Of a stretch of 64,000 nucleotides of DNA, positions 4,249-17,945 are shown piece by piece. The DNA is taken from positions 2,802,939-2,866,938 of the forward strand of contig NZ_CP157793.1 in NCBI RefSeq assembly GCF_040110915.1, given 5' to 3'. Numbering within the stretch: the stretch's first letter is position 1; each line of letters opens with the position of its first letter. The stretch comes from Stappia sp. (lineage in GTDB: Bacteria; Pseudomonadota; Alphaproteobacteria; Rhizobiales; Stappiaceae). Below the pieces are notes generated by a model, which saw nothing but the letters and a program-made list of their open reading frames with translations, was not told the DNA's origin and did not search any database. Made by a program: the position numbers and the translations under genes.

Positions 4249-6570
4249 CTAGCGTCCCTCGGCGGCGGCCGTCGTCGCGGCCTGCCGCTGCGCGGCCTGC
4301 TCGTCCACCACCGGCAGCACGGCGCCGCCGATGGCCTTTTTCTCGGCCTCGGAAAACTGGCGCGGGTCGTCGGCCTCCTGCTGGACGCGCACGGTGACTT
4401 CGCGGTGAGCGAAGTGAATGCCCTCGCGCTCGCACAGATCCCGGATGCCGGCGTAGACCACCTTGCGCAGCTCGAACTGGTCGCCCGGCCGGGTCATGAA
4501 CTTGACCCGCACGATCATCGCCGAGTCTTCCAGCGCCGTGACACCTTGCGACTTCACCGGCTGCAGGAATTTCGGCCCGTAGTCGGGATGCTCCAGCAGC
4601 TCCTGGCCGAACTTCTTGATGAGCTTGCGCATGCGTTCAACGTCGGTGTCGTAGGTGACGCGGAAAGCGAGCTTCATCATCGCCCAGTCGCGCGAGAAGT
4701 TCTTCACGAACTTGATCTCGCCGAAGGGCACCGTATTGAGCGGTCCGTTGTGATGGCGCAGCTGCATGGAGCGGATCGAGATCTTCTCGACCGTGCCCTT
4801 CACGTCGCCGATGTCGATGTATTCGCCCTTGCGGAAGGCATCGTCGATGAGGAAGAACGCGCCGGAGAAGATGTCGCGGATCAGCGTCTGCGCGCCGAAG
4901 CCCACCGCGAGCCCGACGACGCCGGCGCCGGCGAACAGCGGCCCGATGTTCACGCCGAGCTGCGACAGGGCGATCATGCCGGCGATGACCACGATGGTGA
5001 TCAGCAGGAAATTGCGGAAGATCGGCAGAAGCGTGGCAAGCCGGCTTTCGCCGGCGCCGCCGACCTCGGCATCCTCGTTCTTTTCCGTGCCGCCCGATTC
5101 CAGCGCGATCTGCCGGTCGATGGAGATCGCCACGGCCCGATAGGCCATGTAGCCGAGAAACAGGATCAGACCGATCTCGAAGAGATTGGCGGCAAGAAAC
5201 CTGTCGTCGGACAGCGGCACGCCCCAGCGCGACAGCAGAAACCCGAGCCCCACGACGATAGAGAGGATCGCCGCGCCGTGATCCAGCAACTCGCGATAGG
5301 GCGAGCGCGCGCCTTCCGCGTCGAGCGCCTCCGCCTCGGCCTGCGCGCGGGTCGCCGCCGTGTCGGCCTCGCCGCCCTCGCTGGTCGCCGCCCGCTCCAG
5401 ATCCTCCGCCGTGCGCGCCTGCGCGGCATCGCTGTCGAGACGCGGCAGCAGCCAGGTGTCGATGACCAGCACCAGCAGGCCGTAGACGACGGCGCCGACG
5501 AGCAGCGCGAAGACCGGCGCCCCGACGAGCCCCAGCGCCGCCGGCAGATCGAGCAGCACCCGCACCCCGGAGAACAGGAAGGCCACCGCGAAATAGACCA
5601 GCGTGACCGGAAGCCACAGCAGGGTCGCCACCCGCCGCCAGAGCGGTTGCTCGCCCGCGCCGTCGGTTGCCGCGATGCCGCCCGAGATGAGGCGCGTGAT
5701 CGGCCGGCGGAACGCGATGGCGACCCCGGAGAGGGCGATGCAGGCGAAGGCGGCCCCGAACAGCAGCGCCAGCTTGTGCGCGTCGGGGTCGAGGCGCATG
5801 GCCGCCATCCAGGCGCACAGGCCGACGATGACATAGGCGACGCCCGCCACGCCGATCAGGGCGCGGTAGAGCGCATGCGCTTCCGCATCCTGCAAGCCGA
5901 TCATGCGATGCGATCGGGCGTCGGGCGCGAGCACGTTGCGAAAGATGATGCGCAGCACGAGGATGACCGCGACCGCCTCGAGCCCGGTGAAGACCGTGAC
6001 CCGCGACGGCTCGTGGCCGGAGACGAAGGCAAGTGCCACGGCCGCCGAGACGATGGCGAAGACGACGAGCCCCGCCCCCATCATCAAGGCGCGCGTGAAG
6101 AGATATCCGATCTTGGACGCCCGCCCGGTCGGGTTGGGATCGTAGAGATGCAGGAACCGGTGCCGGCCCCAGCGTTCGGTGAGCGCGAGCGCGGCGATGC
6201 CCGCCAGCGCCGAAAGCCCCAGAACCGCCACGGACGACCAAAGCCACGCCAGCGTGTCGTCGGGGGAATGGGCGGCGAGAGCCTGCCCGGCAAGCGTGGG
6301 AAAGGCATCGGCGGCGGTCACCGCCCGCGCGAAGGCGTCGCGCACCTCAAAGGCCAGCGTCCGGTAATCGACCGGCGCCACCGTCGGCCCGGTGCCCGGC
6401 GCATCCGGCGGGGCGTCGGATGCGGCGGCCGTGCCGGCCTCCTGCTGCGCGAGAACGGAGAGAAGTCCCTGCGCCTGTGCGGCGGGCGCGAAGACCACCG
6501 CCATGAACACGAGACAGATGGCCGCGCGGACGATCCCCGCGCCGAAACGCATAGTCTTCATGGTCTTCAT
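4249..6570 (-). CDS. MscS-family mechanosensitive channel with long N-terminal membrane region
   Basis: A 773-residue inner-membrane protein. It begins with a signal-peptide-like segment ending in APAAQAQ, followed by many hydrophobic helices. The MscS core lies in the C-terminal third: the glycine/alanine-rich pore helix (FAGAGVVGLAVGFGAQTL), then the beta domain IGDVKGTVEKISIRS and VPFGEIKFVKN. The extra N-terminal helices resemble MscM/MscK-like and YbiO-like relatives rather than small MscS. Its role would be release of solutes on hypo-osmotic shock. The start at 6570 is preferred because AAGGGG lies just upstream and the signal peptide then begins at residue 1; longer upstream reading adds an arginine-rich stretch with no family support. 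Confidence 0.9.
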   Translation of the reverse strand: MKTMKTMRFGAGIVRAAICLVFMAVVFAPAAQAQGLLSVLAQQEAGTAAASDAPPDAPGTGPTVAPVDYRTLAFEVRDAFARAVTAADAFPTLAGQALAAHSPDDTLAWLWSSVAVLGLSALAGIAALALTERWGRHRFLHLYDPNPTGRASKIGYLFTRALMMGAGLVVFAIVSAAVALAFVSGHEPSRVTVFTGLEAVAVILVLRIIFRNVLAPDARSHRMIGLQDAEAHALYRALIGVAGVAYVIVGLCAWMAAMRLDPDAHKLALLFGAAFACIALSGVAIAFRRPITRLISGGIAATDGAGEQPLWRRVATLLWLPVTLVYFAVAFLFSGVRVLLDLPAALGLVGAPVFALLVGAVVYGLLVLVIDTWLLPRLDSDAAQARTAEDLERAATSEGGEADTAATRAQAEAEALDAEGARSPYRELLDHGAAILSIVVGLGFLLSRWGVPLSDDRFLAANLFEIGLILFLGYMAYRAVAISIDRQIALESGGTEKNEDAEVGGAGESRLATLLPIFRNFLLITIVVIAGMIALSQLGVNIGPLFAGAGVVGLAVGFGAQTLIRDIFSGAFFLIDDAFRKGEYIDIGDVKGTVEKISIRSMQLRHHNGPLNTVPFGEIKFVKNFSRDWAMMKLAFRVTYDTDVERMRKLIKKFGQELLEHPDYGPKFLQPVKSQGVTALEDSAMIVRVKFMTRPGDQFELRKVVYAGIRDLCEREGIHFAHREVTVRVQQEADDPRQFSEAEKKAIGGAVLPVVDEQAAQRQAATTAAAEGR

Positions 6571-6786
6571 GATGCCCCTTCCGCAGTGCCCTGCGGCCCC
6601 CTTGCGCCCGGGCGCGCCCCATGCGCCGCGACCCTGTCGGGCCAGCCCCGTCCGGTCGATCCGCCCGGAGCGCGCGGCCAAGGCGATCACGATGCGGGCG
6701 ACGCTGGTAACATGCGAAAAGGTACTCGAGGTTTCATGACCTGTCCAAGGCGGAACATCGCGTATCCCGCCCCGGCCGCCGCGAAA

Positions 6787-7863
6787 TCAGCAGGCGATCC
6801 GCCCCTGCCACTGGGCCAGCAGATTGCGCGCCTGGGCGGGCACGATCCGCTCGTAGCGCTCGACCAGCCGGCGGCGTTCCGCGTCCGGCAGGCGGTAGCG
6901 CCACGGACCGATCGTCAGCAGCACGCCGACGGTCGCCGGGCGCAACCCGCTGGCGCGGGCGACGATCAGGAACGGATCCACATCGAGACGCACCATCCAG
7001 TGCTTGGCCTCTTCCAGCCCGATGTCGCCAAGGATGGCGAAGATCGCAACCACTTCCGCGAAGCGGTCTTCCTCGGCGAACCTGAGCAGCGTCGCCTCGT
7101 CGAGCCCGGGATCGCGGGCCAGCGCGCAGACCCGCCCCATGGCGGTCTCGAAGTCGTAGCGGGCGAGCCAGAAGTCGTTGGACAGCCGCTGCGCCGCCAT
7201 CTGCGCCGCCTGCGGCACCGCGCCGGCCGCCCGGCGCGCCCGGTCGAAGAGGCGGATCCGGACCCGCTCGCCGGCAAGCGAGGCAAGCTCCGCGATATCG
7301 GTCTCCGACAGATCCTCGCGCTCTGCGAGCGCCAGTTGCAGGTCCTCGTCGAGCCGCGCGGCATCGAGCAGGTGGCGCACCCCGTGGCGCGACAGGCTCG
7401 CGCCGAGGTTCTCCGCCAGCCGGCGCTTGACCCGCTCGCCGCCCTTTTCGACGAGCGTGTCGGTCACCAGTTCCGACAGAATATCGCGGGTGGCGATGGC
7501 CAGGCGATGATCGTCGCCATGGTGACAGGCGATGTCGATCAGATCGCCGTCGCGCAGCACGGTGGAGCGCTCCAGAAGGGGCCGCGCGACGGCAATCTCG
7601 TCGCCGGCGAGCCGGCGCACCGTCGCCTCCGGCGCCCGGCGCAAGGCCGCAAGGCGGCCGGCAATGAACTCGCGCGCCTGCTGCTCCACCATCTCCGACA
7701 GACGTACCAGAACCGAATCATAGATCTGGATCTGCTCTTCCGAACAGGTCTCGGAGGTCAGGGAGAACAGCATGGCGACGTTGCATGCCAGATCGTTCCG
7801 CCGGGAGATATCGTCTTCCCGGGCAAGGGCCTCGAAGTTTACGAGCTCCGTGTTCGCCATCAT
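6787..7863 (-). CDS. DUF2336 domain protein
   Basis: A 358-residue soluble helical protein matching the DUF2336 family, common in Alphaproteobacteria and without an established function. The N-terminal half has repeated short helices with alternating acidic and arginine-rich faces (for example LLERSTVLRDGDLIDIA), reminiscent of HEAT-like packing. No signal peptide or membrane segment is seen. Two adjacent ATG codons (7863 and 7860) are possible starts. It stands alone, with non-coding gaps of about 216 and 330 bases on either side, so context gives no pathway. Confidence 0.85.
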   Translation of the reverse strand: MMANTELVNFEALAREDDISRRNDLACNVAMLFSLTSETCSEEQIQIYDSVLVRLSEMVEQQAREFIAGRLAALRRAPEATVRRLAGDEIAVARPLLERSTVLRDGDLIDIACHHGDDHRLAIATRDILSELVTDTLVEKGGERVKRRLAENLGASLSRHGVRHLLDAARLDEDLQLALAEREDLSETDIAELASLAGERVRIRLFDRARRAAGAVPQAAQMAAQRLSNDFWLARYDFETAMGRVCALARDPGLDEATLLRFAEEDRFAEVVAIFAILGDIGLEEAKHWMVRLDVDPFLIVARASGLRPATVGVLLTIGPWRYRLPDAERRRLVERYERIVPAQARNLLAQWQGRIAC

Positions 7864-8103
7864 GGACAGGGCCTCGATTCGCTGTTCGTAGCTTCAGTTT
7901 GCGTGAAATAGCATGGCCCACGTGAACAAAAATTGCAGTGACGCACGTCGCCTTATAATAAAAGTCGAAAAGTTGTTTCGAAAAAACTGTCCCTCAATCG
8001 TCTAAAATTTTAGAGACGGGCCGGACACCCTTTTCCGGCGTGGAAGACAGAACGGCGGGAAGGGATTATGGTCACGCGCCGTCCGGCGGCAGCGCCCCCA
8101 CGC

Positions 8104-8190
8104 GCGAGGCCCCCAACCCGCGAGGCGCCCACGCGCGAGGCCCCCCATCCGCGAGGCCCTCATGCGCGAGGCCCCCATGCGCGAGGTATG
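8104..8190. repeat. Six-copy 15/16-bp tandem repeat, GCGAGG-containing, upstream of trmO
   Basis: GCGAGG followed by a C-rich tail recurs at 8104, 8120, 8135, 8151, 8166 and 8181, a period of 15 or 16 bases. The last copy supplies the GAGG that serves as ribosome-binding site for the ATG at 8195. Every unit therefore carries a Shine-Dalgarno-like core. The remainder of the 330-base gap (7864-8103) is an AT-richer promoter-like stretch near 7925-8010 with no gene. Confidence 0.9.
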
Positions 8191-8194
8191 AACC

Positions 8195-8728
8195 ATGACA
8201 GACACGACGCACTCCTCCCCCGTGAAACCGCCGCGCCCCGGCGAAGAGCGGCTCGCCCGCGATCCCGCGGAGCTTGCCCCCGACGCGGGCCTGGTGTTCA
8301 TCGGCCACATCGAAACACCCTGGCAAACGCCGGACGCCTGCCCGCGCAACGCCCGCGCCAGCGACGCCACCGCCCGCGTCCGCCTCAAGCCCGAGTATCT
8401 GCCCGGCCTCGCCTCGATCGACAGCTGCACCCATGTGATCCTGCTCTACTGGATGCACCGGGCGCGCCGCGATCTGATCGTGCAGGCCCCCTCCTTCGCG
8501 AAAGGCGCGCACGGCTGTTTCGCCCTGCGCTCGCCGATCCGGCCCAATCCGGTCTCGCTCAGCGTGTCGGAACTGGTGGAGCGGACCGACGACGGCCTGA
8601 TCGTGCGCGGCATCGACTGCCTGAACGGAACGCCGCTCATCGACATCAAGCCCTATTTCGCCCGCACCGACAGCGTGGCCGGGGCAAGCGTCGGCTGGTT
8701 CGAGCGCGAGGACGACGGCGGATCGTGA
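8195..8728 (+). CDS. trmO: tRNA (N6-threonylcarbamoyladenosine-37 N6)-methyltransferase, TsaA/TrmO family
   Basis: A 177-residue protein of the TsaA-like beta-barrel family that methylates the t6A37 base of certain tRNAs using S-adenosylmethionine. Family motifs are FIGHIETPW near residue 36, LASIDSCTHVILLYWMH, RSPIRPNPVSLSV and IDCLNGTPLIDIKPY. The first 30 residues are a proline-rich extension. The ATG at 8195 is preceded by GCGAGG from the last unit of a tandem repeat. No partner gene is nearby; the next gene, oxyR, starts 93 bases on. Confidence 0.92.
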   Translation: MTDTTHSSPVKPPRPGEERLARDPAELAPDAGLVFIGHIETPWQTPDACPRNARASDATARVRLKPEYLPGLASIDSCTHVILLYWMHRARRDLIVQAPSFAKGAHGCFALRSPIRPNPVSLSVSELVERTDDGLIVRGIDCLNGTPLIDIKPYFARTDSVAGASVGWFEREDDGGS

Positions 8729-8821
8729 CGGCGCAAGGCCACCGGCGGGGCGGCATTCTCGCGCATAGGCATCAGCACAAACCCCATTGAACGCCGCGGC
8801 ACATCAGCATACCTGATAGGC

Positions 8822-9775
8822 ATGCTGACCCTTCGCCAACTTCGCTATTTCGATGCGCTGGCCCGGCACCGTCATTTCGGGCGCGCCGCGGAAGACGTTT
8901 CCGTCTCCCAGCCCGCCCTGTCGATGCAGATCCGCGAACTGGAAGCCACGCTCGGCATCGCGCTGGTGGAGCGCCGGCCGAACGCGGTGCGCCTCACCGA
9001 ACGGGGACGGGAGGTCGCCCGGCGCGCGGCGCGGATACTCTCCGACGCCCGCGACCTGACGGACTATGCCCGCCACTCCGGGCAGGTGCTCACGGGCACG
9101 CTGCGGCTCGGCATCATTCCTTCGATCGCCCCCTATCTGCTGCCGCAGGTCCTGCCCGAGCTGACGCACGCCTATCCGCAGGTGGACCTTCAGATCCGCG
9201 AGACCCTGACCCGCTCGCTGGTCGACGAACTCGCGCATGGCGATCTCGACGTGATCCTGGCCGCCCTGCCACTGGACGGCGCGGACCTGGAAACCCATGC
9301 GCTGTTCGACGACCGCTTCCTGCTCGCGGTGCAGAACGGCCCCGACCTCGACGAGCGCAACCGGGTCGATCCCTCGACCATCGACGGCGCCTCCCTGCTC
9401 CTGCTGGAGGAAGGGCATTGCCTGCGCGACCAGGCACTCAACTATTGCGAGGGACTGCGCCCCACGGGACGCTCCACCTTCGGCGCGACGAGCCTGTCGA
9501 CGGTGATGCAGATGGTCGCCGCCGGCTACGGCGTCACCTTGCTGCCGGAACTCTGCGCTTCGGTCGAGGTGCGCGACGAGCGGGTGAGCCTGCTGCGCTT
9601 CACCGACCCGCAGCCGCAGCGCGTGGTCGGGCTCGCCTGGCGCAAGACCTCGCCGCGACGCGCCGATTTCCTGGCACTCGGCGACTGCGTGCGCGCCGCG
9701 CTGAAGCTGCCCCCGACACCGGCCGCCGACCCGGCTCCCGCCGCCGCGCCGTCCGCCGTGCCGCCCGCGCCATGA
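8822..9775 (+). CDS. oxyR: OxyR-type LysR-family hydrogen peroxide sensor
   Basis: A 317-residue LysR regulator: N-terminal winged helix (residues 1-60, with VSQPALSMQIRELE) and a substrate-binding-like domain. It holds the two redox cysteines of OxyR at C200 and C209 within GHCLRDQALNYC, the same nine-residue spacing as C199/C208 of E. coli OxyR. A disulfide between them on peroxide exposure is expected to activate target genes. No katG or ahpC lies beside it here; a LuxR-type regulator follows 58 bases downstream. The last 20 residues are an alanine/proline-rich tail. Confidence 0.93.
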   Translation: MLTLRQLRYFDALARHRHFGRAAEDVSVSQPALSMQIRELEATLGIALVERRPNAVRLTERGREVARRAARILSDARDLTDYARHSGQVLTGTLRLGIIPSIAPYLLPQVLPELTHAYPQVDLQIRETLTRSLVDELAHGDLDVILAALPLDGADLETHALFDDRFLLAVQNGPDLDERNRVDPSTIDGASLLLLEEGHCLRDQALNYCEGLRPTGRSTFGATSLSTVMQMVAAGYGVTLLPELCASVEVRDERVSLLRFTDPQPQRVVGLAWRKTSPRRADFLALGDCVRAALKLPPTPAADPAPAAAPSAVPPAP

Positions 9776-9833
9776 GGGAGGCTCCGCGCGTCCGCCCCCA
9801 ACCCGAGGCTGCGCCCGCGCGCAGGACCGCCGC

Positions 9834-10460
9834 ATGATCCTTCACCCGTCGTCCTCCGTCGCCGCCCCAGGTCTCGCGCTGCTGTTTCAGGTGCTCGACA
9901 AGCGCGGCAGTTCGGCGTTTCTGCTCGACCGGCAGGCGACGATCCTGGCCCGCAACGAGGCGGCCCAGCGCCTGCTGGAGGGCGCCTGCGGCCTGCTCGT
10001 TCCCACCGGGCGGCGCGGCAACCGTCTGGAGTTCGCGCATCCGCTCACCCAGCGCACGCTGACCGCAGCCCTTGCCGCGCTGCTGCGCCCGACCGGCCCC
10101 GATCCGACGCAGCAAAGCGATCTGTGCCTGACCTGCGACGACGGGCCGATGCTCGGGGAACTCTACCCCGTTCTGCTGCCCGACCCGGGCCCGGCGGGTC
10201 CGCGCGGCGCGGTGCTCGTGCTGTCGCGCGGCAACGCGCCACCGCCCACGCTGGAACCGCGCCTGCGGCTGCTGTTCAACCTGACCCCGCGCGAAAGCGC
10301 CGTCGCGGTGCATCTGGCCAGCGCCCTGCCCGAAACCGAGATCGCCCGCGACCTCGACATCAGCGAAAACACCCTGCGCACCCACCGCAAGGCGATCTAC
10401 GCCAAGCTCGGGGTGAACAGCCGGGCGGAGTTTTCGGCGATCGTCGCGCGGCTGATGTGA
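9834..10460 (+). CDS. LuxR-type helix-turn-helix regulator with PAS-like N-terminus
   Basis: A 208-residue protein. The C-terminal 60 residues form a LuxR/FixJ-type HTH (LTPRESAVAVHLASALPETEIA, then SENTLRTHRKAIYAKLGV). The N-terminal 120 residues resemble a small PAS-like sensor (AFLLDRQATILARNEAAQRLL). No receiver domain or autoinducer-binding domain is recognised, so this is not a quorum-sensing LuxR. It lies between oxyR and the DUF2293 gene, all on the same strand with short gaps, and may share a transcript. Confidence 0.82.
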   Translation: MILHPSSSVAAPGLALLFQVLDKRGSSAFLLDRQATILARNEAAQRLLEGACGLLVPTGRRGNRLEFAHPLTQRTLTAALAALLRPTGPDPTQQSDLCLTCDDGPMLGELYPVLLPDPGPAGPRGAVLVLSRGNAPPPTLEPRLRLLFNLTPRESAVAVHLASALPETEIARDLDISENTLRTHRKAIYAKLGVNSRAEFSAIVARLM

Positions 10461-10467
10461 GGCGGCG

Positions 10468-10803
10468 ATGCTGCGCGGCAAGGGCACGAAGCGCCAGCGC
10501 GAGATGCGCCGGCACTTGCGCCGGCTCGCGCCGCGCATTCCCTATGGCGATGCCGAGGCCGTGCTCGACGGCGCGCTTGCCCCCCATCTGCGCCACCTGC
10601 CGCCGGCCATCGCGCTGTGGCAGGCGATGACCGCCCGCGTCCGCCACGCCCACAGCCCCTATGAGACGCTGCTCGACGAGGGTTACGACCGCGACGCGGC
10701 GCGGTTCTTCGTGCTCGACGACATGAACGCGACGCTGCAGGACTGGGGCGTCACACGCCGCGTCGACGCCGACGGGTCCGATGACGGCGCCGACCACACC
10801 TGA
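10468..10803 (+). CDS. DUF2293 domain protein
   Basis: A small basic protein of 111 residues matching DUF2293, a family of unknown function. The conserved core is AMTARVRHAHSPYETLLDEGYDRDAARFFV, followed by a short region ending in LQDWG. It starts 8 bases after the upstream regulator stop, suggesting co-transcription. It converges on the MOSC gene with a 29-base gap. No signal peptide or membrane segment. Confidence 0.82.
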   Translation: MLRGKGTKRQREMRRHLRRLAPRIPYGDAEAVLDGALAPHLRHLPPAIALWQAMTARVRHAHSPYETLLDEGYDRDAARFFVLDDMNATLQDWGVTRRVDADGSDDGADHT

Positions 10804-10832
10804 CACCGCTCCCGACGGGACGCGGGAGGTGG

Positions 10833-11450
10833 CTAGCGATAGAGCCAGTGCTCGGGGATATGGGCGGTCACCGCCTCGCCGGGGCGAATGACGCCGGGGC
10901 GCTCGACATAGGCGACCAGCCCGCGCCGGCGGCGCGCGACCTTGGGAAACAGAAGATCCAGCCCCTCGTGCCCGGGGCAGCGTTCGGCGATTGCCTTGCC
11001 CGCGATCCGGCAGGGCGCGTTGTCGCCGTCGACCCGCAGGACCACGCCGCCGGCGAAGACGAGACGCGTGCGCGGCGGGACGAGCGACAGACGGGGAATG
11101 CCCTCGGTCACCACATTGCCGCCGATCCACCCCGCCTCCAGACGCTCGATGCCCATGTCGGCGGCGACCGCGGCCAGTTCCTCCGCCGACAGCACCGAGA
11201 TCTGGCGCTCGTTGCACATCTCCGTGCCGTTCGGATACCAGGGCTCGCGTCCGCCGGAACGCCGGGTGAAACCGGAATGCCGGTCGCCGGGAATGCCCTC
11301 GAAGCCGATCTTGAGCGCCGCCGTCCACTCGGTGCGGAAATCCTCGGGCCGTTTCGTGGCAAGCGCCTGCACGACCGTGCCCGACACCTTGCGCGCCGGT
11401 GCGCTGATCAAGTCTTCCGCCTGTTCGCGCCCGAAGAGATCGGCCGTCAT
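10833..11450 (-). CDS. MOSC domain protein
   Basis: A 205-residue protein with the MOSC (molybdenum cofactor sulfurase C-terminal) beta-barrel. The expected conserved cysteine is in DGDNAPCRIAG, and GWIGGNVVTEGI and LVPPRTRLVF match the family core. Related stand-alone proteins bind or carry molybdenum-cofactor sulfur or act in detoxifying reductions; the substrate here is unknown. The ATG at 11450 is preferred over the one at 11462 because GGAG lies at proper spacing upstream of it. About 280 bases between it and ettA hold only a terminator. Confidence 0.87.
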   Translation of the reverse strand: MTADLFGREQAEDLISAPARKVSGTVVQALATKRPEDFRTEWTAALKIGFEGIPGDRHSGFTRRSGGREPWYPNGTEMCNERQISVLSAEELAAVAADMGIERLEAGWIGGNVVTEGIPRLSLVPPRTRLVFAGGVVLRVDGDNAPCRIAGKAIAERCPGHEGLDLLFPKVARRRRGLVAYVERPGVIRPGEAVTAHIPEHWLYR

Positions 11451-11667
11451 CCTGGTCTCCATTGTCCAATCTCACGCAGCCGTGGCCCGCCGCTGTCGCG
11501 TTTCCCGCTCGCAGACGGTCGTTGCGTTTTGCAGCCGCGCGGGGTGCGGGGACATTGCCGCAAGCCCCGATGCGCCCGCGCCGCGCCTTCCAGTCGCAAC
11601 CCTAGTCCGATTCCGCCGGTCGGAAAACGCGGGCGCGCCGGTCGGAGCGGCGAACGCCGCCCAGACG

Positions 11668-11701
11668 AAAAACCGCGCCCGCGCGGGGTGCGCGGACGCG
11701 G
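11668..11701 (-). terminator. Rho-independent terminator of ettA
   Basis: On the minus strand an 11-bp stem (11691-11701 with 11673-11683, one G-T pair) closes a 7-base loop and is followed by five T residues (11668-11672). It lies just past the ettA stop codon (11735). Confidence 0.8.
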
Positions 11702-11734
11702 CTTGCGTCGTTTCGGCCCGTGGGGTCGGCCAGC

Positions 11735-13390
<1,656 letters not shown>

Positions 13391-13590
13391 AGGTGCCTGC
13401 CGCTCCGCTAATGTCGAGAAGGGGAAACTGAGGTCGTGTCTTAGTCGAAGGCACAGGCCGGAGCAAGGGCTGCCCGCGCCGCGGCCGCCCGCGGACGCCG
13501 TCCGGCGTTTACCGCGCGTTCACCGCTTGCCAGCAGCATCGCGCCGGGGCCGGGCACTTTGTGAAACCCGCAAGTCTGGAAGGAAGTCTC

Positions 13591-13848: not shown

Positions 13849-14061
13849 CCGGAAACGGCGGCTGACGAGGCCGGGCTTCGGCCCACACCTCCCTGCGCGC
13901 CCCCGCCGCAAATCCCCGGCGGGGGTGCGGAGGCGGTCCGCTCGCCACGAGCACAACCCAGACGTTATTCCAAAAAATATCTTCCGCCTTGATTGCGTGT
14001 CACAGAGATCACAAGATCGCTGGATAGAAGCAGGCTGCGGCACGTCCAAAAGGAGGGTGGA

Positions 14062-14346
14062 ATGAGCTGGTCTTTGTTGTGGGTCGACCATTGGTCCGGA
14101 TGCCCGGACACGCAGGAGGCAACGCGGGACGGCCGGAATCCGGCACAGGGCGCGATGGTCTCCGGCAGGACCGACCTGCCCACGTCCTCCGGGACCGCGT
14201 CCTCGACGTCCCAGCCGGCGTCCCCGCTGACCGAGGGGATCGACCCCCGGATTGCCGCCGCCGCGCACAGCGCCCTGGAGCGCATCGCGCAGGTGCAGGA
14301 CACCCTTCTCGATCCGGTTCTCGACCCCGCGCCGGGTCCCGCCTGA
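14062..14346 (+). CDS. Small hypothetical protein
   Basis: A 94-residue open frame starting 7 bases after a perfect AGGAGG Shine-Dalgarno. The product is serine/threonine/proline-rich in the middle, with a short helical C-terminal part (IAAAAHSALERIAQVQDTL). No family is recognised and no signal peptide or membrane segment is seen. The strong ribosome-binding site and the codon pattern of the C-terminal half are the main reasons to accept it. It converges on the membrane protein gene ending at 14422. Confidence 0.55.
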   Translation: MSWSLLWVDHWSGCPDTQEATRDGRNPAQGAMVSGRTDLPTSSGTASSTSQPASPLTEGIDPRIAAAAHSALERIAQVQDTLLDPVLDPAPGPA

Positions 14347-14421
14347 CGGTCCGGCGGCGGCAGACCCTCCGCGCGCCAACCGCGCGGGTCCCGCGCCCGT
14401 GTCCCGCACTAAGCGCCGGAC

Positions 14422-15282
14422 TCAGTGCCGCAGCAGCGATGCGTCGGCCGGGGCCGCAGTGGCGTCCGGCGCGGCACACGCGGCCGCCCGATAGCGGCGG
14501 AGCACCATCACCAGATCGAGGTGGAAGATCGACACGAACAGCAGGAAGGACGAGATCACCGCCGGTTCCGTCCACACATAGGCCTGATAGACGGCCGCGT
14601 TGCCGAGCGGCAGGGTGATGTCCTTGACGACGAAGAGCACCAGATAGCTCAGCGCCAGCACGGCGCTGATCTTGCCGACCGTCCGGCGCATGCGCGCCGC
14701 CGGCAGATGCACCAGTGCCGTCGCATGCAGGACCGGATGCACCTCCTCGTTCCGCAGGATGCTGGTCGAGATCAGCAGCCCGGACAGCACCACGAAGCCT
14801 TGCGAGAAGAAGAACAGATAGCTGCCGACCATATGCATGTCGTTGTCGACGCCCATCCGGTACTGGCTGAGCACGACCATGCCCGCCGAGGCGCCGATCT
14901 GCAGCACGATGGCCGTGCAGGCGGCCGCCGCCATGGTCCGGGCGGTCGCCGGCGACACGTCCTTTAGATGCCGGGCCGCCAGCAGGGACAGACCCGCGAC
15001 CACGCACACGCCCACGAACAGAATGCCCGCGCTCAGGGAAATCCAGAAGGCGAAGGGCTCGCCGATCAACGGATCGGACAGCGCGCGGCTGATCGTCGGC
15101 GGATATTGGGCCACATAGTCGGGATGGGTGGCGATGAAGCGCGCCCGCGCCCAGTAGATGTAGTAATTCACCACCGCCACCACGAAGGTGTTGGCGACAA
15201 GCGCCGTCACGGCGGCCGCGGCAAGCCATTTCGGCGGGCGGGCCCAGAAGGGATGCCGGGCGGCGGTATAGTGGTCGTTCAT
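14422..15282 (-). CDS. Multi-pass membrane protein, possibly Frag1/DRAM/Sfk1-like
   Basis: A 286-residue integral membrane protein with about six hydrophobic helices. Features are a first helix ending in YYIYWARARF, a loop YPPTISRALSDP, and later helices around LFFFSQGFVVLSGLLIS and SYLVLFVVKDI. The PTISR loop before helix two recalls the Frag1/DRAM/Sfk1 family, but the match is by eye only. The ATG at 15282 is chosen because the coding-like residue pattern begins there; the upstream frame is an arginine- and proline-rich shadow. No neighbour suggests a function. Confidence 0.7.
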   Translation of the reverse strand: MNDHYTAARHPFWARPPKWLAAAAVTALVANTFVVAVVNYYIYWARARFIATHPDYVAQYPPTISRALSDPLIGEPFAFWISLSAGILFVGVCVVAGLSLLAARHLKDVSPATARTMAAAACTAIVLQIGASAGMVVLSQYRMGVDNDMHMVGSYLFFFSQGFVVLSGLLISTSILRNEEVHPVLHATALVHLPAARMRRTVGKISAVLALSYLVLFVVKDITLPLGNAAVYQAYVWTEPAVISSFLLFVSIFHLDLVMVLRRYRAAACAAPDATAAPADASLLRH

Positions 15283-15975
15283 TCCGGAAGCGTCCTCGAC
15301 TGATCCGGCCCATCGGTGCGGCGGAGTATTCTGCAGCGCAAACGATTGCGCAACCTGCCAAAGGCGGCTTTGGCGCAGACAGGCCACACCTGTGTCCCGG
15401 AAGCCGCAGGGGACACGGCGGAGTCTGGCGGCGCGCCTTCTGGGCGAGCATTGGGCGGGAGGTCGGCGCAGGAATTCGGAGATCCCGAACAATCAGGTTC
15501 AACGAACCGCCCGTCACTCCGCAGGAATGCTACAAATCATTGAGAAGATGGTGGGCCCCACTGGATCAAAGAAAATAATAATTTCAATGATTTAGGGTGC
15601 TCTATTTTCCCGGTACCGTCCGAAATCCCGTCACTTTTTCCGGTGTCGTGAGCTAGCCATTTCGCTCGCAACGACAGCGAAAGCATATCAGATTCTGATG
15701 AGAACGACAGGCTTCTGCGGCAAATTATGGGCCAATTTTCGCTTCGTCGTCGTCCTCTATATCCCCAATTTGATAACAATCCAGAAATCTTAAATAGCAT
15801 TCCCGCTAAGCCGCGAGCACCCAACCCATCTGCGCCGGTTGCTCCGGAGAGGCCGGCGCCGGACGATCATTGTCGTCACGAAGCTCGAACATTATGTGCC
15901 ACTCGATCATCGCCGCTAGTAGCAGCCCCAAGGTTGATAGGGTGCCGCATGCCTCCAAGTGTCAACGCGAGGCCG
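15283..15975. other. Gene-poor stretch: island boundary
   Basis: No gene I can support in 693 bases. Base composition shifts toward AT from about 15,540 onward. The region contains the left copy of the tRNA-end repeat (15549-15558). Several short frames occur on both strands, none with a ribosome-binding site and recognisable product. It may be decayed DNA of the inserted segment. Confidence 0.6.
15549..15558. repeat. Candidate distal attachment site (copy of tRNA-Ile2 3' end)
   Basis: TGGTGGGCCC here is identical to 17869-17878, the last ten bases of the tRNA-Ile2 gene including the encoded CCA, in the same orientation. It lies on the 3' side of the tRNA, where integration duplicates would be expected. 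The following bases match only weakly (GGA a few bases on). Confidence 0.45.
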
Positions 15976-17268
15976 TCAATCGTCAGCGTCTGTTTCTGTC
16001 CACGAAAGCCCGCTTAGTATTTCCCATGCCGCTAGAAAATGATCATGGGCGATGTAACCAAACTTCGGAAGGTCATCCGAAAAGTAGATATCGTCGATGC
16101 CGTTTCGATAGCAATGAGCGATATAATCGCTGAAAACGGTTCGCAAAATCCCGCTAAGCCTTATGTGCATGTTATGGCAAATTACTGCCTCAATCATGCT
16201 GGTCTTGAAGCTTCTCCAATCAGGGGTGCATATTTCCGGCAAAACGGAAACGCCATCCTTTCCCATGAAGAATTCATCAAAGGAATCCTGCATAATACGG
16301 ATTGCCTGCCCAATAAACGCCGAGTGCAAGCTCTCCAACCAGTATTCATTATTGGGAACTTGATCGATTAGGGCCTGCACCGCTTCTAGTCGAGACGGAT
16401 CGGAGGTGCCAGAAACCTTACCTTCAGAAGATGAAGCTCTGAGAGGGCTGAATGGATTCACAATGCAGAGAACCAAGGTGTTCGGAAGGGCGAAGACCGC
16501 GGTGGTCTCAGCCCAGTACTGCCGCGCATAGATGAGCCCATGTAGCCCTGCTGCTTCAAGTCTCTGCGAGACTAATCCCGTCATGATTTTAAACGCATCT
16601 TGGGCATAGTCTGGGGGCATGCAGCCGGGCTCGCCTGCATCAATCCACCCGTCGATTAAAGGAAAGGATGCCGTCACCACAGTCATCGACCCATCGTCGA
16701 GGACATTGTTTTCGATCCAACGGTAGTACAGTTCGCTTGGATAATATGTCTCAAGCACGATTTGATCGCCATCCATCCGAGGAATAAAAGCGAGGACGTT
16801 CTTATTGTTGATGATCAGTTCTTGCGCCAGTGCATCTCTAACGCCCCTTCCTTCCATCGGTGCAATCAGAACCGACATCAGGCTTGACTCAGACAGCGGC
16901 GGGAACAAAGTGCAGAAGTGATTTGCGTAGCCCAAAAGCTCATTGAACGCTTGGCGCTCTGTCTGGGTAGATTTTTTTAGTTCGATTATGACGAGATCGC
17001 CTGAACCCGAGATGATTCCTAGTAGATCAATACGAGTCGTACTGTCACCGTCTCGAACCAAACGTACCTCTTTTCCGTCGATTTGAAGCTCCTCTAGATC
17101 TTCAATCATTCGATTGATCTTCGTTTCCGTCCGATTTTGAAGAAGGTCCGCTATGCTAGGGAAAGATCCTTCTGGCAGGGCGAGAGGTTCACGCTTCTCG
17201 ACTATCAAGGAATGCAGATCGTCCTTGTGGTTACTGAACAGGTAATCTCTTAATTCGTTTTCGTTCAT
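15976..17268 (-). CDS. PD-(D/E)XK nuclease-like protein, island-borne
   Basis: A 430-residue soluble protein. Around residues 70-110 it has the restriction-like nuclease signature: D81 in RIDLLGI, then E96 and K98 in VIIELKKS, followed by a helix containing LLGYANHF, as in NucS/DUF91-like and DUF4263-like nucleases. The C-terminal 300 residues are not recognised. ATG at 17268 follows GGGGAC. Codon use is AT-richer than all neighbours, indicating horizontal transfer. As an orphan cargo gene next to a tRNA it could be a defence nuclease, but no partner gene is present and the function is inferred. Confidence 0.75.
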   Translation of the reverse strand: MNENELRDYLFSNHKDDLHSLIVEKREPLALPEGSFPSIADLLQNRTETKINRMIEDLEELQIDGKEVRLVRDGDSTTRIDLLGIISGSGDLVIIELKKSTQTERQAFNELLGYANHFCTLFPPLSESSLMSVLIAPMEGRGVRDALAQELIINNKNVLAFIPRMDGDQIVLETYYPSELYYRWIENNVLDDGSMTVVTASFPLIDGWIDAGEPGCMPPDYAQDAFKIMTGLVSQRLEAAGLHGLIYARQYWAETTAVFALPNTLVLCIVNPFSPLRASSSEGKVSGTSDPSRLEAVQALIDQVPNNEYWLESLHSAFIGQAIRIMQDSFDEFFMGKDGVSVLPEICTPDWRSFKTSMIEAVICHNMHIRLSGILRTVFSDYIAHCYRNGIDDIYFSDDLPKFGYIAHDHFLAAWEILSGLSWTETDADD

Positions 17269-17868
17269 AAGTCCCCGCAGTGGATGTATTTTATGCGAGA
17301 TCGCATTCGCTTTACTCGGACGACGGCACTGAGAGACTGCTAGTATTCGCGCCCGATGACAATGACCGATTTTAAAATACACTCACTGACCTCTGGCTTC
17401 GAACAAGGGTTGTCAGCCGAACGGCGGCCCGCAGGTCGCACCGATCTGAATCAGACGGCTGCTCGTTAGACGAGTCCACGCTTACGGGGGCCTCTATAGC
17501 TGTCCCTCGATTCAGCAGCAGCGCAGACAACATTTGGTTGGATGGACTTGGCAAAAGTTGGTGTGGTTGCACGTGGTTTCGTGTTGAGGACTCGAACCCG
17601 CAACCAAGACGAAAATGCCGCCATCCAAAAGCGCCTAGATTCGAGGTGTTGCTGTATTCGTCAAAATATTTGATGGTTAACGGTATTTTTGGATTGAAGG
17701 CGCTGCGGCTTTACTAGGGCAAAAACGGCCTGACGGTATCCGAGGCTTAAAACTGGCGGTATTTTGGGGGTCAGGATACCGTCAAAATGGCTTGGCTGGG
17801 CCATTTTCTGAAAGTTAAGTTATTGATTTTATTGTTAAAATATTTGACAAATGGTCAAAAAAGGCAGT
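17269..17868. other. AT-rich non-coding arm next to the tRNA
   Basis: No gene is supported in these 600 bases. Visible structures: a tRNA-like T-arm and CCA at 17574-17605; near-identical 13-mers T(C/T)AAAATATTTGA at 17661-17673 and 17835-17847; a 10-bp inverted repeat GACGGTATCC (17732-17741) with GGATACCGTC (17774-17783); and CGGTATTTT motifs near 17681 and 17757. Such arrays are typical of recombinase arm and core sites. Confidence 0.55.
17574..17605 (-). repeat. tRNA-like 3' fragment (T-arm plus CCA)
   Basis: Aligned without gaps to the last 32 bases of the tRNA-Ile2 gene (17869-17900), 21 of 32 positions match. The CCA end, the GGACTCGAACCC loop region and AACC are kept, while the acceptor strand differs. 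No anticodon arm or matching 5' half is found upstream. It is a pseudo-tRNA fragment or a diverged attachment site. Confidence 0.5.
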
Positions 17869-17945
17869 TGGTGGGCCCGGAGGGACTCGAACCCCCAACC
17901 AATCCGTTATGAGCGGACGGCTCTAACCAATTGAGCTACAGGCCC
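17869..17945 (-). tRNA. tRNA-Ile2 (anticodon CAT, lysidine-modified)
   Basis: A full 77-base cloverleaf including encoded CCA. The acceptor stem is GGGCCTG with CGGGCCC (one T-G pair), the D-arm is TAGCTCAATTGGTTAGAG, the anticodon stem GTCCG/CGGAT encloses loop CTCATAA, and the T-loop is TTCGAGT. A CAT anticodon can be elongator Met or Ile2; the GGGCC acceptor and the anticodon arm context favour Ile2, whose C34 is changed to lysidine by TilS. It is the likely integration target of the adjacent mini-island. Confidence 0.9.

What the first reader, a model, noticed from the sequence alone, without database searches (positions are those of the whole stretch)
15549..17945. Small island on the 3' side of tRNA-Ile2, with a 10-bp end repeat
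The last ten bases of the tRNA gene (TGGTGGGCCC, 17869-17878) recur in the same orientation at 15549-15558. The 2.3 kb between is AT-richer than its flanks and carries a foreign-looking nuclease-like gene. This is the geometry left by tyrosine-recombinase integration into a tRNA 3' end, but no integrase remains. tRNA-Ile2 is essential, so the intact gene copy is kept on the chromosome side.
Basis: partly seen in the sequence, partly recalled or inferred. Interest (0 to 1): 0.65.

Follow-up and report, generated by a model that had tools for sequence, protein, structure and literature searches.

The report
Integrase-less nuclease island beside tRNA-Ile2
A 2.3-kb piece of foreign DNA carrying one defence-like nuclease gene has been spliced onto the end of a tRNA gene and has no integrase of its own, a small relic-type example of a well-known way in which bacteria gain genes.

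Summary
TGGTGGGCCC occurs at 15549 and 17869 and nowhere else in the window. The DNA between is 49% GC against about 69% outside. Its one sizeable gene (15976-17268, minus strand) has no match in the other 86 genomes of the family.

The 60 nt beyond the distal repeat match the native 3' flank of the same tRNA in congener G007 at 35 of 60 positions; the other 85 tRNA flanks reach at most 24. G007 is therefore an empty site.

The tRNA end is a repeated target: 7 of 86 related loci carry 15-19-nt copies of it downstream, against 0 of 435 shuffled sequences. Two of those seven retain whole integrases, two show apparent stumps, in three none was found. Best reading: a decayed, CIME-like integrative element, probably built in tandem (a tRNA-derived scrap lies at 17550-17607).

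The gene encodes a PD-(D/E)XK nuclease whose N-terminal domain resembles NucS/EndoMS (Z 10.7, 110 residues). Homologues lie in restriction islands, viral contigs, and beside Shedu and Gabija genes. An anti-phage role is inferred, not shown. New member of a known kind.

The parts
17869..17945 (-). tRNA gene with CAU anticodon (tRNA-Ile2 by recalled features), single copy, intact; integration target
   Evidence: ARAGORN tRNA-Met CAT; one match in own genome
17869..17878 (+). proximal copy of the 10-bp repeat = last ten bases of the tRNA gene including CCA
15549..15558 (+). distal copy of the repeat = left end of the island
   Evidence: flank homology
15559..17868 (.). inserted segment, 49% GC
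15495..15548 (.). native chromosomal flank: aligns to the DNA directly 3' of the same tRNA in congener G007 (empty site)
15976..17268 (-). 430-aa PD-(D/E)XK nuclease gene (ATG at 17268; homologues start at the same place); D81, E96 and K98 invariant
17588..17607 (-). tRNA-derived fragment (T arm, tRNA nt 44-63, 19 of 20); weaker match with gaps on to 17550; likely scar of a second, tandem insertion
   Evidence: score 19.8, 300 shuffles max 18.8; pattern found only here and in the tRNA gene
17804..17840 (+). AT-rich end motif near the tRNA; similar motif directly follows tRNA-Pro in G448 and a tRNA-3'-like scrap in G023; candidate recombinase-binding end

Best explanation
The segment 15559-17868 is what is left of an integrative element (or of two in tandem) that a tyrosine recombinase inserted at the 3' end of tRNA-Ile2. 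Recombination within a 10-bp identical core (GGGCCCACCA) left the tRNA gene whole on the right and a copy of its last ten bases, followed by the original flank, on the left. The integrase has since been lost or was supplied in trans, so the element is now CIME-like: ends present, no recombinase, no transfer genes. What persists is one cargo gene, a PD-(D/E)XK nuclease with a NucS/EndoMS-like N-terminal domain and a roughly 250-aa C-terminal part. The most likely role is single-gene anti-phage defence by cutting foreign or replicating DNA. Shown: the ends, the empty site, the foreign composition, the patchy distribution, the reuse of the tRNA site, the nuclease motif and a matching predicted fold. 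Inferred: the recombinase class, the tandem history, the defence role.
For: Empty site in G007. Composition change points at both ends. Gene found in 1 of 87 family genomes, yet 66-81% identical in Sphingopyxis, a Hoeflea MAG, Parasphingorhabdus and another alphaproteobacterial MAG, where only the gene itself is similar. Seven of 86 relatives' loci carry 15-19-nt copies of the tRNA end, 0 of 435 shuffles; whole integrases in two of the seven (G021, G065), apparent N-terminal integrase stumps with stops in two (G009, G103, read by eye). tRNA-derived scrap inside. Nuclease: PDC-S11 6e-5, phrog_30092 8e-8, HSDR_N 0.004, all overlapping at residues 77-103; model pLDDT 77, top fold matches EndoMS/NucS Z 10.7-9.7 against 8.2 for the next row. 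Homologues: beside SduA (1e-136), GajA (2e-64) and GajB (4e-54) on a Rhizobium plasmid, beside restriction genes, in four IMG/VR viral contigs.
Against: The repeat is 10 bp, shorter than the 15-19 nt at the seven other loci. No integrase scrap was seen in the island. Shared arm-type repeats at the two ends are not significant here (GACGGTA, 112 of 300 shuffles do as well), though they are in two of the other seven. The best left change point (15473) is 76 nt outside the repeat, though 15549 is inside its support interval in one of the two ranges tried (15438-15565; the other gave 15447-15535). The empty site rests on one congener at 58-70% identity; two further congeners, G005 and G011, match only the first 7 nt after CCA. 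Foldseek alone gave no PDB match under E 0.001.
Confidence: 0.8

Rival explanations
1. The segment came in by homologous recombination of shared flanks (transformation or transduction of a neighbour's already filled site); no recombinase acted in this lineage and the 10-bp repeat was inherited with it.
For: No integrase is present; congeners G010 and G011 carry other DNA between the same neighbours, so the locus is a hotspot that flank recombination could reload.
Against: It does not explain how the tRNA-end copy arose, only how it spread; the gene was found in no other of 87 family genomes, and the 600-nt tRNA-proximal stretch matches 6 others of 397 genomes of the order over 31-51 nt only.
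Confidence: 0.12
2. The island is larger and runs from about 13990 to 17868, including the Frag1-like gene; the 10-bp repeat is chance.
For: The Frag1-like gene has no match in the 13 congeners; relatives have a GGDEF-EAL gene and tRNA-Arg(CCT) there.
Against: 15495-15548, between the two, is native flank by homology with G007; the Frag1-like gene has native composition (GC 0.668, GC3 0.885).
Confidence: 0.05
3. The cargo nuclease is a DNA-repair or element-maintenance nuclease rather than a defence protein.
For: Its best fold matches are repair enzymes NucS/EndoMS; one homologue scores weakly with the NCBIfam NucS model (1.7e-4, 20.7 bits, cut-off 216).
Against: Patchy distribution and neighbourhoods rich in defence genes.
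Confidence: 0.25

Closest known systems
CIME (cis-mobilizable element), decayed ICE/IME remnant that keeps attL and attR
   Same: Direct repeats of a tRNA end, no integration or transfer genes, a scrap suggesting tandem accretion. Definition read in passages of PMC5704250.
   Different: Only 2.3 kb, one gene, 10-bp core; excision not tested; no resident related ICE/IME found.
tmRNA (ssrA) genomic islands of Dehalococcoides
   Same: Insertion at the 3' end of an essential RNA gene leaving a direct repeat; 15 of their islands lack integration modules (passages of PMC3146451).
   Different: Those use serine recombinases and 20-bp repeats; here two of the relatives' islands carry tyrosine integrases.
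Defence-carrying tRNA hotspots of Escherichia coli
   Same: tRNA hotspot with defence cargo and unclear mobilisation (passages of PMC10121019).
   Different: Other host group; the islands described there as of unclear mobilisation typically keep integrases or recombinases.
NucS/EndoMS endonucleases
   Same: Nuclease domain fold (Z 10.7, 2.7 A, 110 residues, 21% identity).
   Different: Here the nuclease domain is N-terminal (model residues 1-170 align to chain residues 126-240) and is followed by about 250 aa of other structure.
Shedu (SduA, DUF4263)
   Same: Single-gene nuclease with an ExK-type motif; a homologue sits one gene cluster away from an SduA gene.
   Different: No SduA model matches the window protein; profile comparison gives 4% probability over 28 columns.

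Membership tests
tRNA-integrated genomic island | tRNA gene whole at one end, copy of its 3' end at the other | tested here: met
tRNA-integrated genomic island | relative with an empty site | tested here: met
   G007: (one congener, diverged)
tRNA-integrated genomic island | patchy presence and foreign composition | tested here: met
CIME | no integration or transfer genes | tested here: met
   one sizeable gene, no PF00589 within the window
CIME | att sites still usable (excision with a helper) | not testable with these tools
   needs PCR for circle and empty site
Autonomous ICE/IME, prophage or P4-like satellite | own integrase | tested here: not met
PD-(D/E)XK nuclease superfamily | D...ExK motif on the fold | tested here: met
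   D81, E96, K98 invariant in A2 and A3; predicted fold; activity not tested
NucS/EndoMS | score over the family cut-off | tested here: not met
   window protein has no NucS hit; homologue L159 20.7 bits against cut-off 216
Shedu (SduA) | match to SduA models | tested here: not met
PDC-S11 (PADLOC candidate) | match over the length of the model | tested here: inconclusive
   E 6.1e-5 but residues 74-119 only, model 52-95 of 358
Anti-phage defence system | protection against phage | not testable with these tools
   only neighbourhood evidence

The most novel reading that the evidence does not exclude
tRNA-Ile2 in this bacterial family is a docking site for very small, integrase-less cassettes, each carrying one to a few defence-like genes, which move by borrowing the integrases of larger elements that use the same tRNA end; and the 430-aa protein founds an unnamed single-gene defence nuclease family (NucS-like domain plus a new C-terminal part).
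Probability: 0.2. Interest if true: 0.6.

Novelty: new member of a known kind. Interest (0 to 1): 0.35.

Why it matters
It gives a clean worked case of a tRNA hotspot in several states (empty, with integrase, with apparent stump, without integrase), which makes the decay path of small islands readable. It also points to an unnamed nuclease family that travels in islands, plasmids and viral contigs and sits near known anti-phage genes, so it can be tested directly.

Tried and rejected
Arm-type repeats shared by the two ends of this island: GACGGTA twice near the tRNA and once at the far end, but 112 of 300 shuffles do as well; the commonest 6-mer count is also ordinary (153 of 500). Not used as evidence.

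A resident helper integrase: the genome's third PF00589 gene (478-aa ORF, 2.2 kb from tRNA-Leu(CAG)) was examined. The tRNA-Leu has no longer 3' repeat downstream than 9 nt, no island end motif was found there, and only weak blastn matches to the island (best E 0.038). Rejected.

First structure model (5 close sequences) was useless, pLDDT 34; a second with 9 sequences reached 77. Foldseek alone gave no PDB match under E 0.001, best XisH-type proteins at 7e-3; the NucS ranking comes from VIA-align on Foldseek's list. The C-terminal part was not folded alone. The viral structure library gave two matches under 0.001 with low TM-scores (0.27 or less), not interpreted.

No match of the tRNA-proximal 600 nt in phage or plasmid records, and none of the protein in phage records. 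Literature: search listings; passages read of PMC5704250, PMC3146451 and PMC10121019 only. No claim is made that this nuclease family is absent from print; the searches were narrow.

The family survey has limits: downstream DNA was cut at 18 kb and was much shorter at some contig ends (748 nt in G005), so 7 of 86 is a lower bound. Integrase state of the seven: G021 and G065 confirmed with Pfam; G009 and G103 stumps read by eye from translations; G009 and G019 also have no PF00589 hit near the tRNA; G080, G103 and G076 were not in that search, and G076's genes were not scanned with Pfam.

Full report
Observation. The repeat, the tRNA and the composition break are as described. TGGTGGGCCC occurs at two + strand places in 64 kb, 15549 and 17869, and the scan of the other orientation found none. 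GC falls from 0.69 to 0.49 between them. Right change point 17870; left 15473 with a support interval of 15438-15565 in one range tried and 15447-15535 in the other. The gene's GC3 is 0.53 against 0.83-0.91 in five neighbours. The tRNA is called Met(CAT) by ARAGORN; calling it Ile2 is from recalled features. It is single copy at E <= 1e-15.

Empty site. In congeners G007, G010 and G011 the order is an ABC-F gene, a small gene, variable DNA, the tRNA and an AI-2E-type permease, as in the window. In G007 the tRNA is followed by a 75-nt spacer and a GGDEF-EAL gene. The 60 nt beyond the distal repeat of the window match this flank at 35 positions without gaps; over all 86 relatives' tRNA flanks the mean is 17.4 (SD 3.4) and the second best 24; the best other place in the same G007 stretch is 28. 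Blastn joins repeat and flank in one 64-nt match, 70%, E 4.7e-6. The flank next to the tRNA in the window itself is unlike G007 (13 of 60). So 15559-17868 was inserted between the tRNA end and its native flank. G005 and G011 share the first 7 nt after CCA with the distal flank, weaker support.

A reused site. Among 86 loci from 85 other genomes of the family, seven have a 15-19-nt copy of the tRNA 3' end within 18 kb: G009 at 3.2 kb, G019 1.4 kb, G080 2.4 kb, G103 3.6 kb, G065 12.3 kb, G076 13.4 kb, G021 16.6 kb; 0 of 435 shuffled sequences do with a 14-nt criterion. G021 and G065 have whole tyrosine integrases next to the tRNA. G009 and G103 have the start of an integrase-like reading frame, broken by stops (by eye). 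In G019 and G080 no integrase was seen among the listed reading frames. Cargo includes DUF7002 and M48/M78-like genes (G009), an eCIS-core-like gene (G019) and an RTasTM-like gene (G103). G009's element has the near end of G103's type and the far end of the type of G019 and G076, which is what recombination between tandem elements would leave.

Inside the window's island. A fragment at 17588-17607 equals tRNA nt 44-63 at 19 of 20 positions, and a gapped match continues to 17550 with the CACCAACT end (score 19.8; 300 shuffles at most 18.8). Within the genome the 20-mer pattern, two mismatches allowed, is found only here and in the tRNA gene. I read it as the scar of a second insertion. The stretch at 17804-17840 resembles DNA that follows a tRNA-Pro directly in G448 and a tRNA-end-like scrap in G023.

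The gene. 430 aa, no Pfam family at 0.001. Weak matches of PDC-S11, phrog_30092 and HSDR_N share residues 77-103. D81, E96 and K98 are invariant in alignments A2 (7 sequences) and A3 (9), together 11 sequences. The model from A3 has pLDDT 77, pTM 0.78; EndoMS/NucS chains lead the VIA-align list (Z 10.7, 10.5, 9.7; next 8.2), while Foldseek alone is not significant. Relatives at 66-81% lie in other alphaproteobacteria, sharing only the gene at DNA level, one of them in a restriction island. More distant ones (25-44%) lie on plasmids and in four viral contigs; the Rhizobium one stands near Shedu and Gabija genes, one viral one follows an integrase-like gene (Phage_int_M 2.4e-5, under its cut-off).

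Verdict. The thing is a small, integrase-less, CIME-like remnant at a tRNA hotspot with a probable defence nuclease. The kind is known (passages of PMC5704250 and PMC3146451). The nuclease family is the more interesting part; its role is inferred.

Noticed in passing
13990-15495: Separate replacement: a Frag1-like membrane gene of native composition stands where G007, G010 and G011 have a GGDEF-EAL gene and tRNA-Arg(CCT); in this genome tRNA-Arg(CCT) lies at 3.69 Mb beside tRNA-Ala(CGC).
   Followed up: partly
L033, L038 (G013, G009): tRNA-Ile2 sits in the opposite orientation between the same neighbours, with the variable DNA still on its 3' side.
   Followed up: no
L038, L050, L114 distal ends; L038 and L122 proximal ends: Elements of different genera with different cargo share about 100 nt of end sequence (TACTCC repeats); the G009 element combines two end types.
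   Followed up: partly
G009 contig C14 (L059, L061): A 50-nt copy of the tRNA-Arg(CCT) 3' part lies 10 kb from the gene, another typical tRNA island.
   Followed up: no
L036 (G011) 5600-13500: An 8-kb insert (sulfatase-like and other genes) lies between the GGDEF-EAL gene and tRNA-Ile2 without a detectable tRNA-end copy.
   Followed up: no
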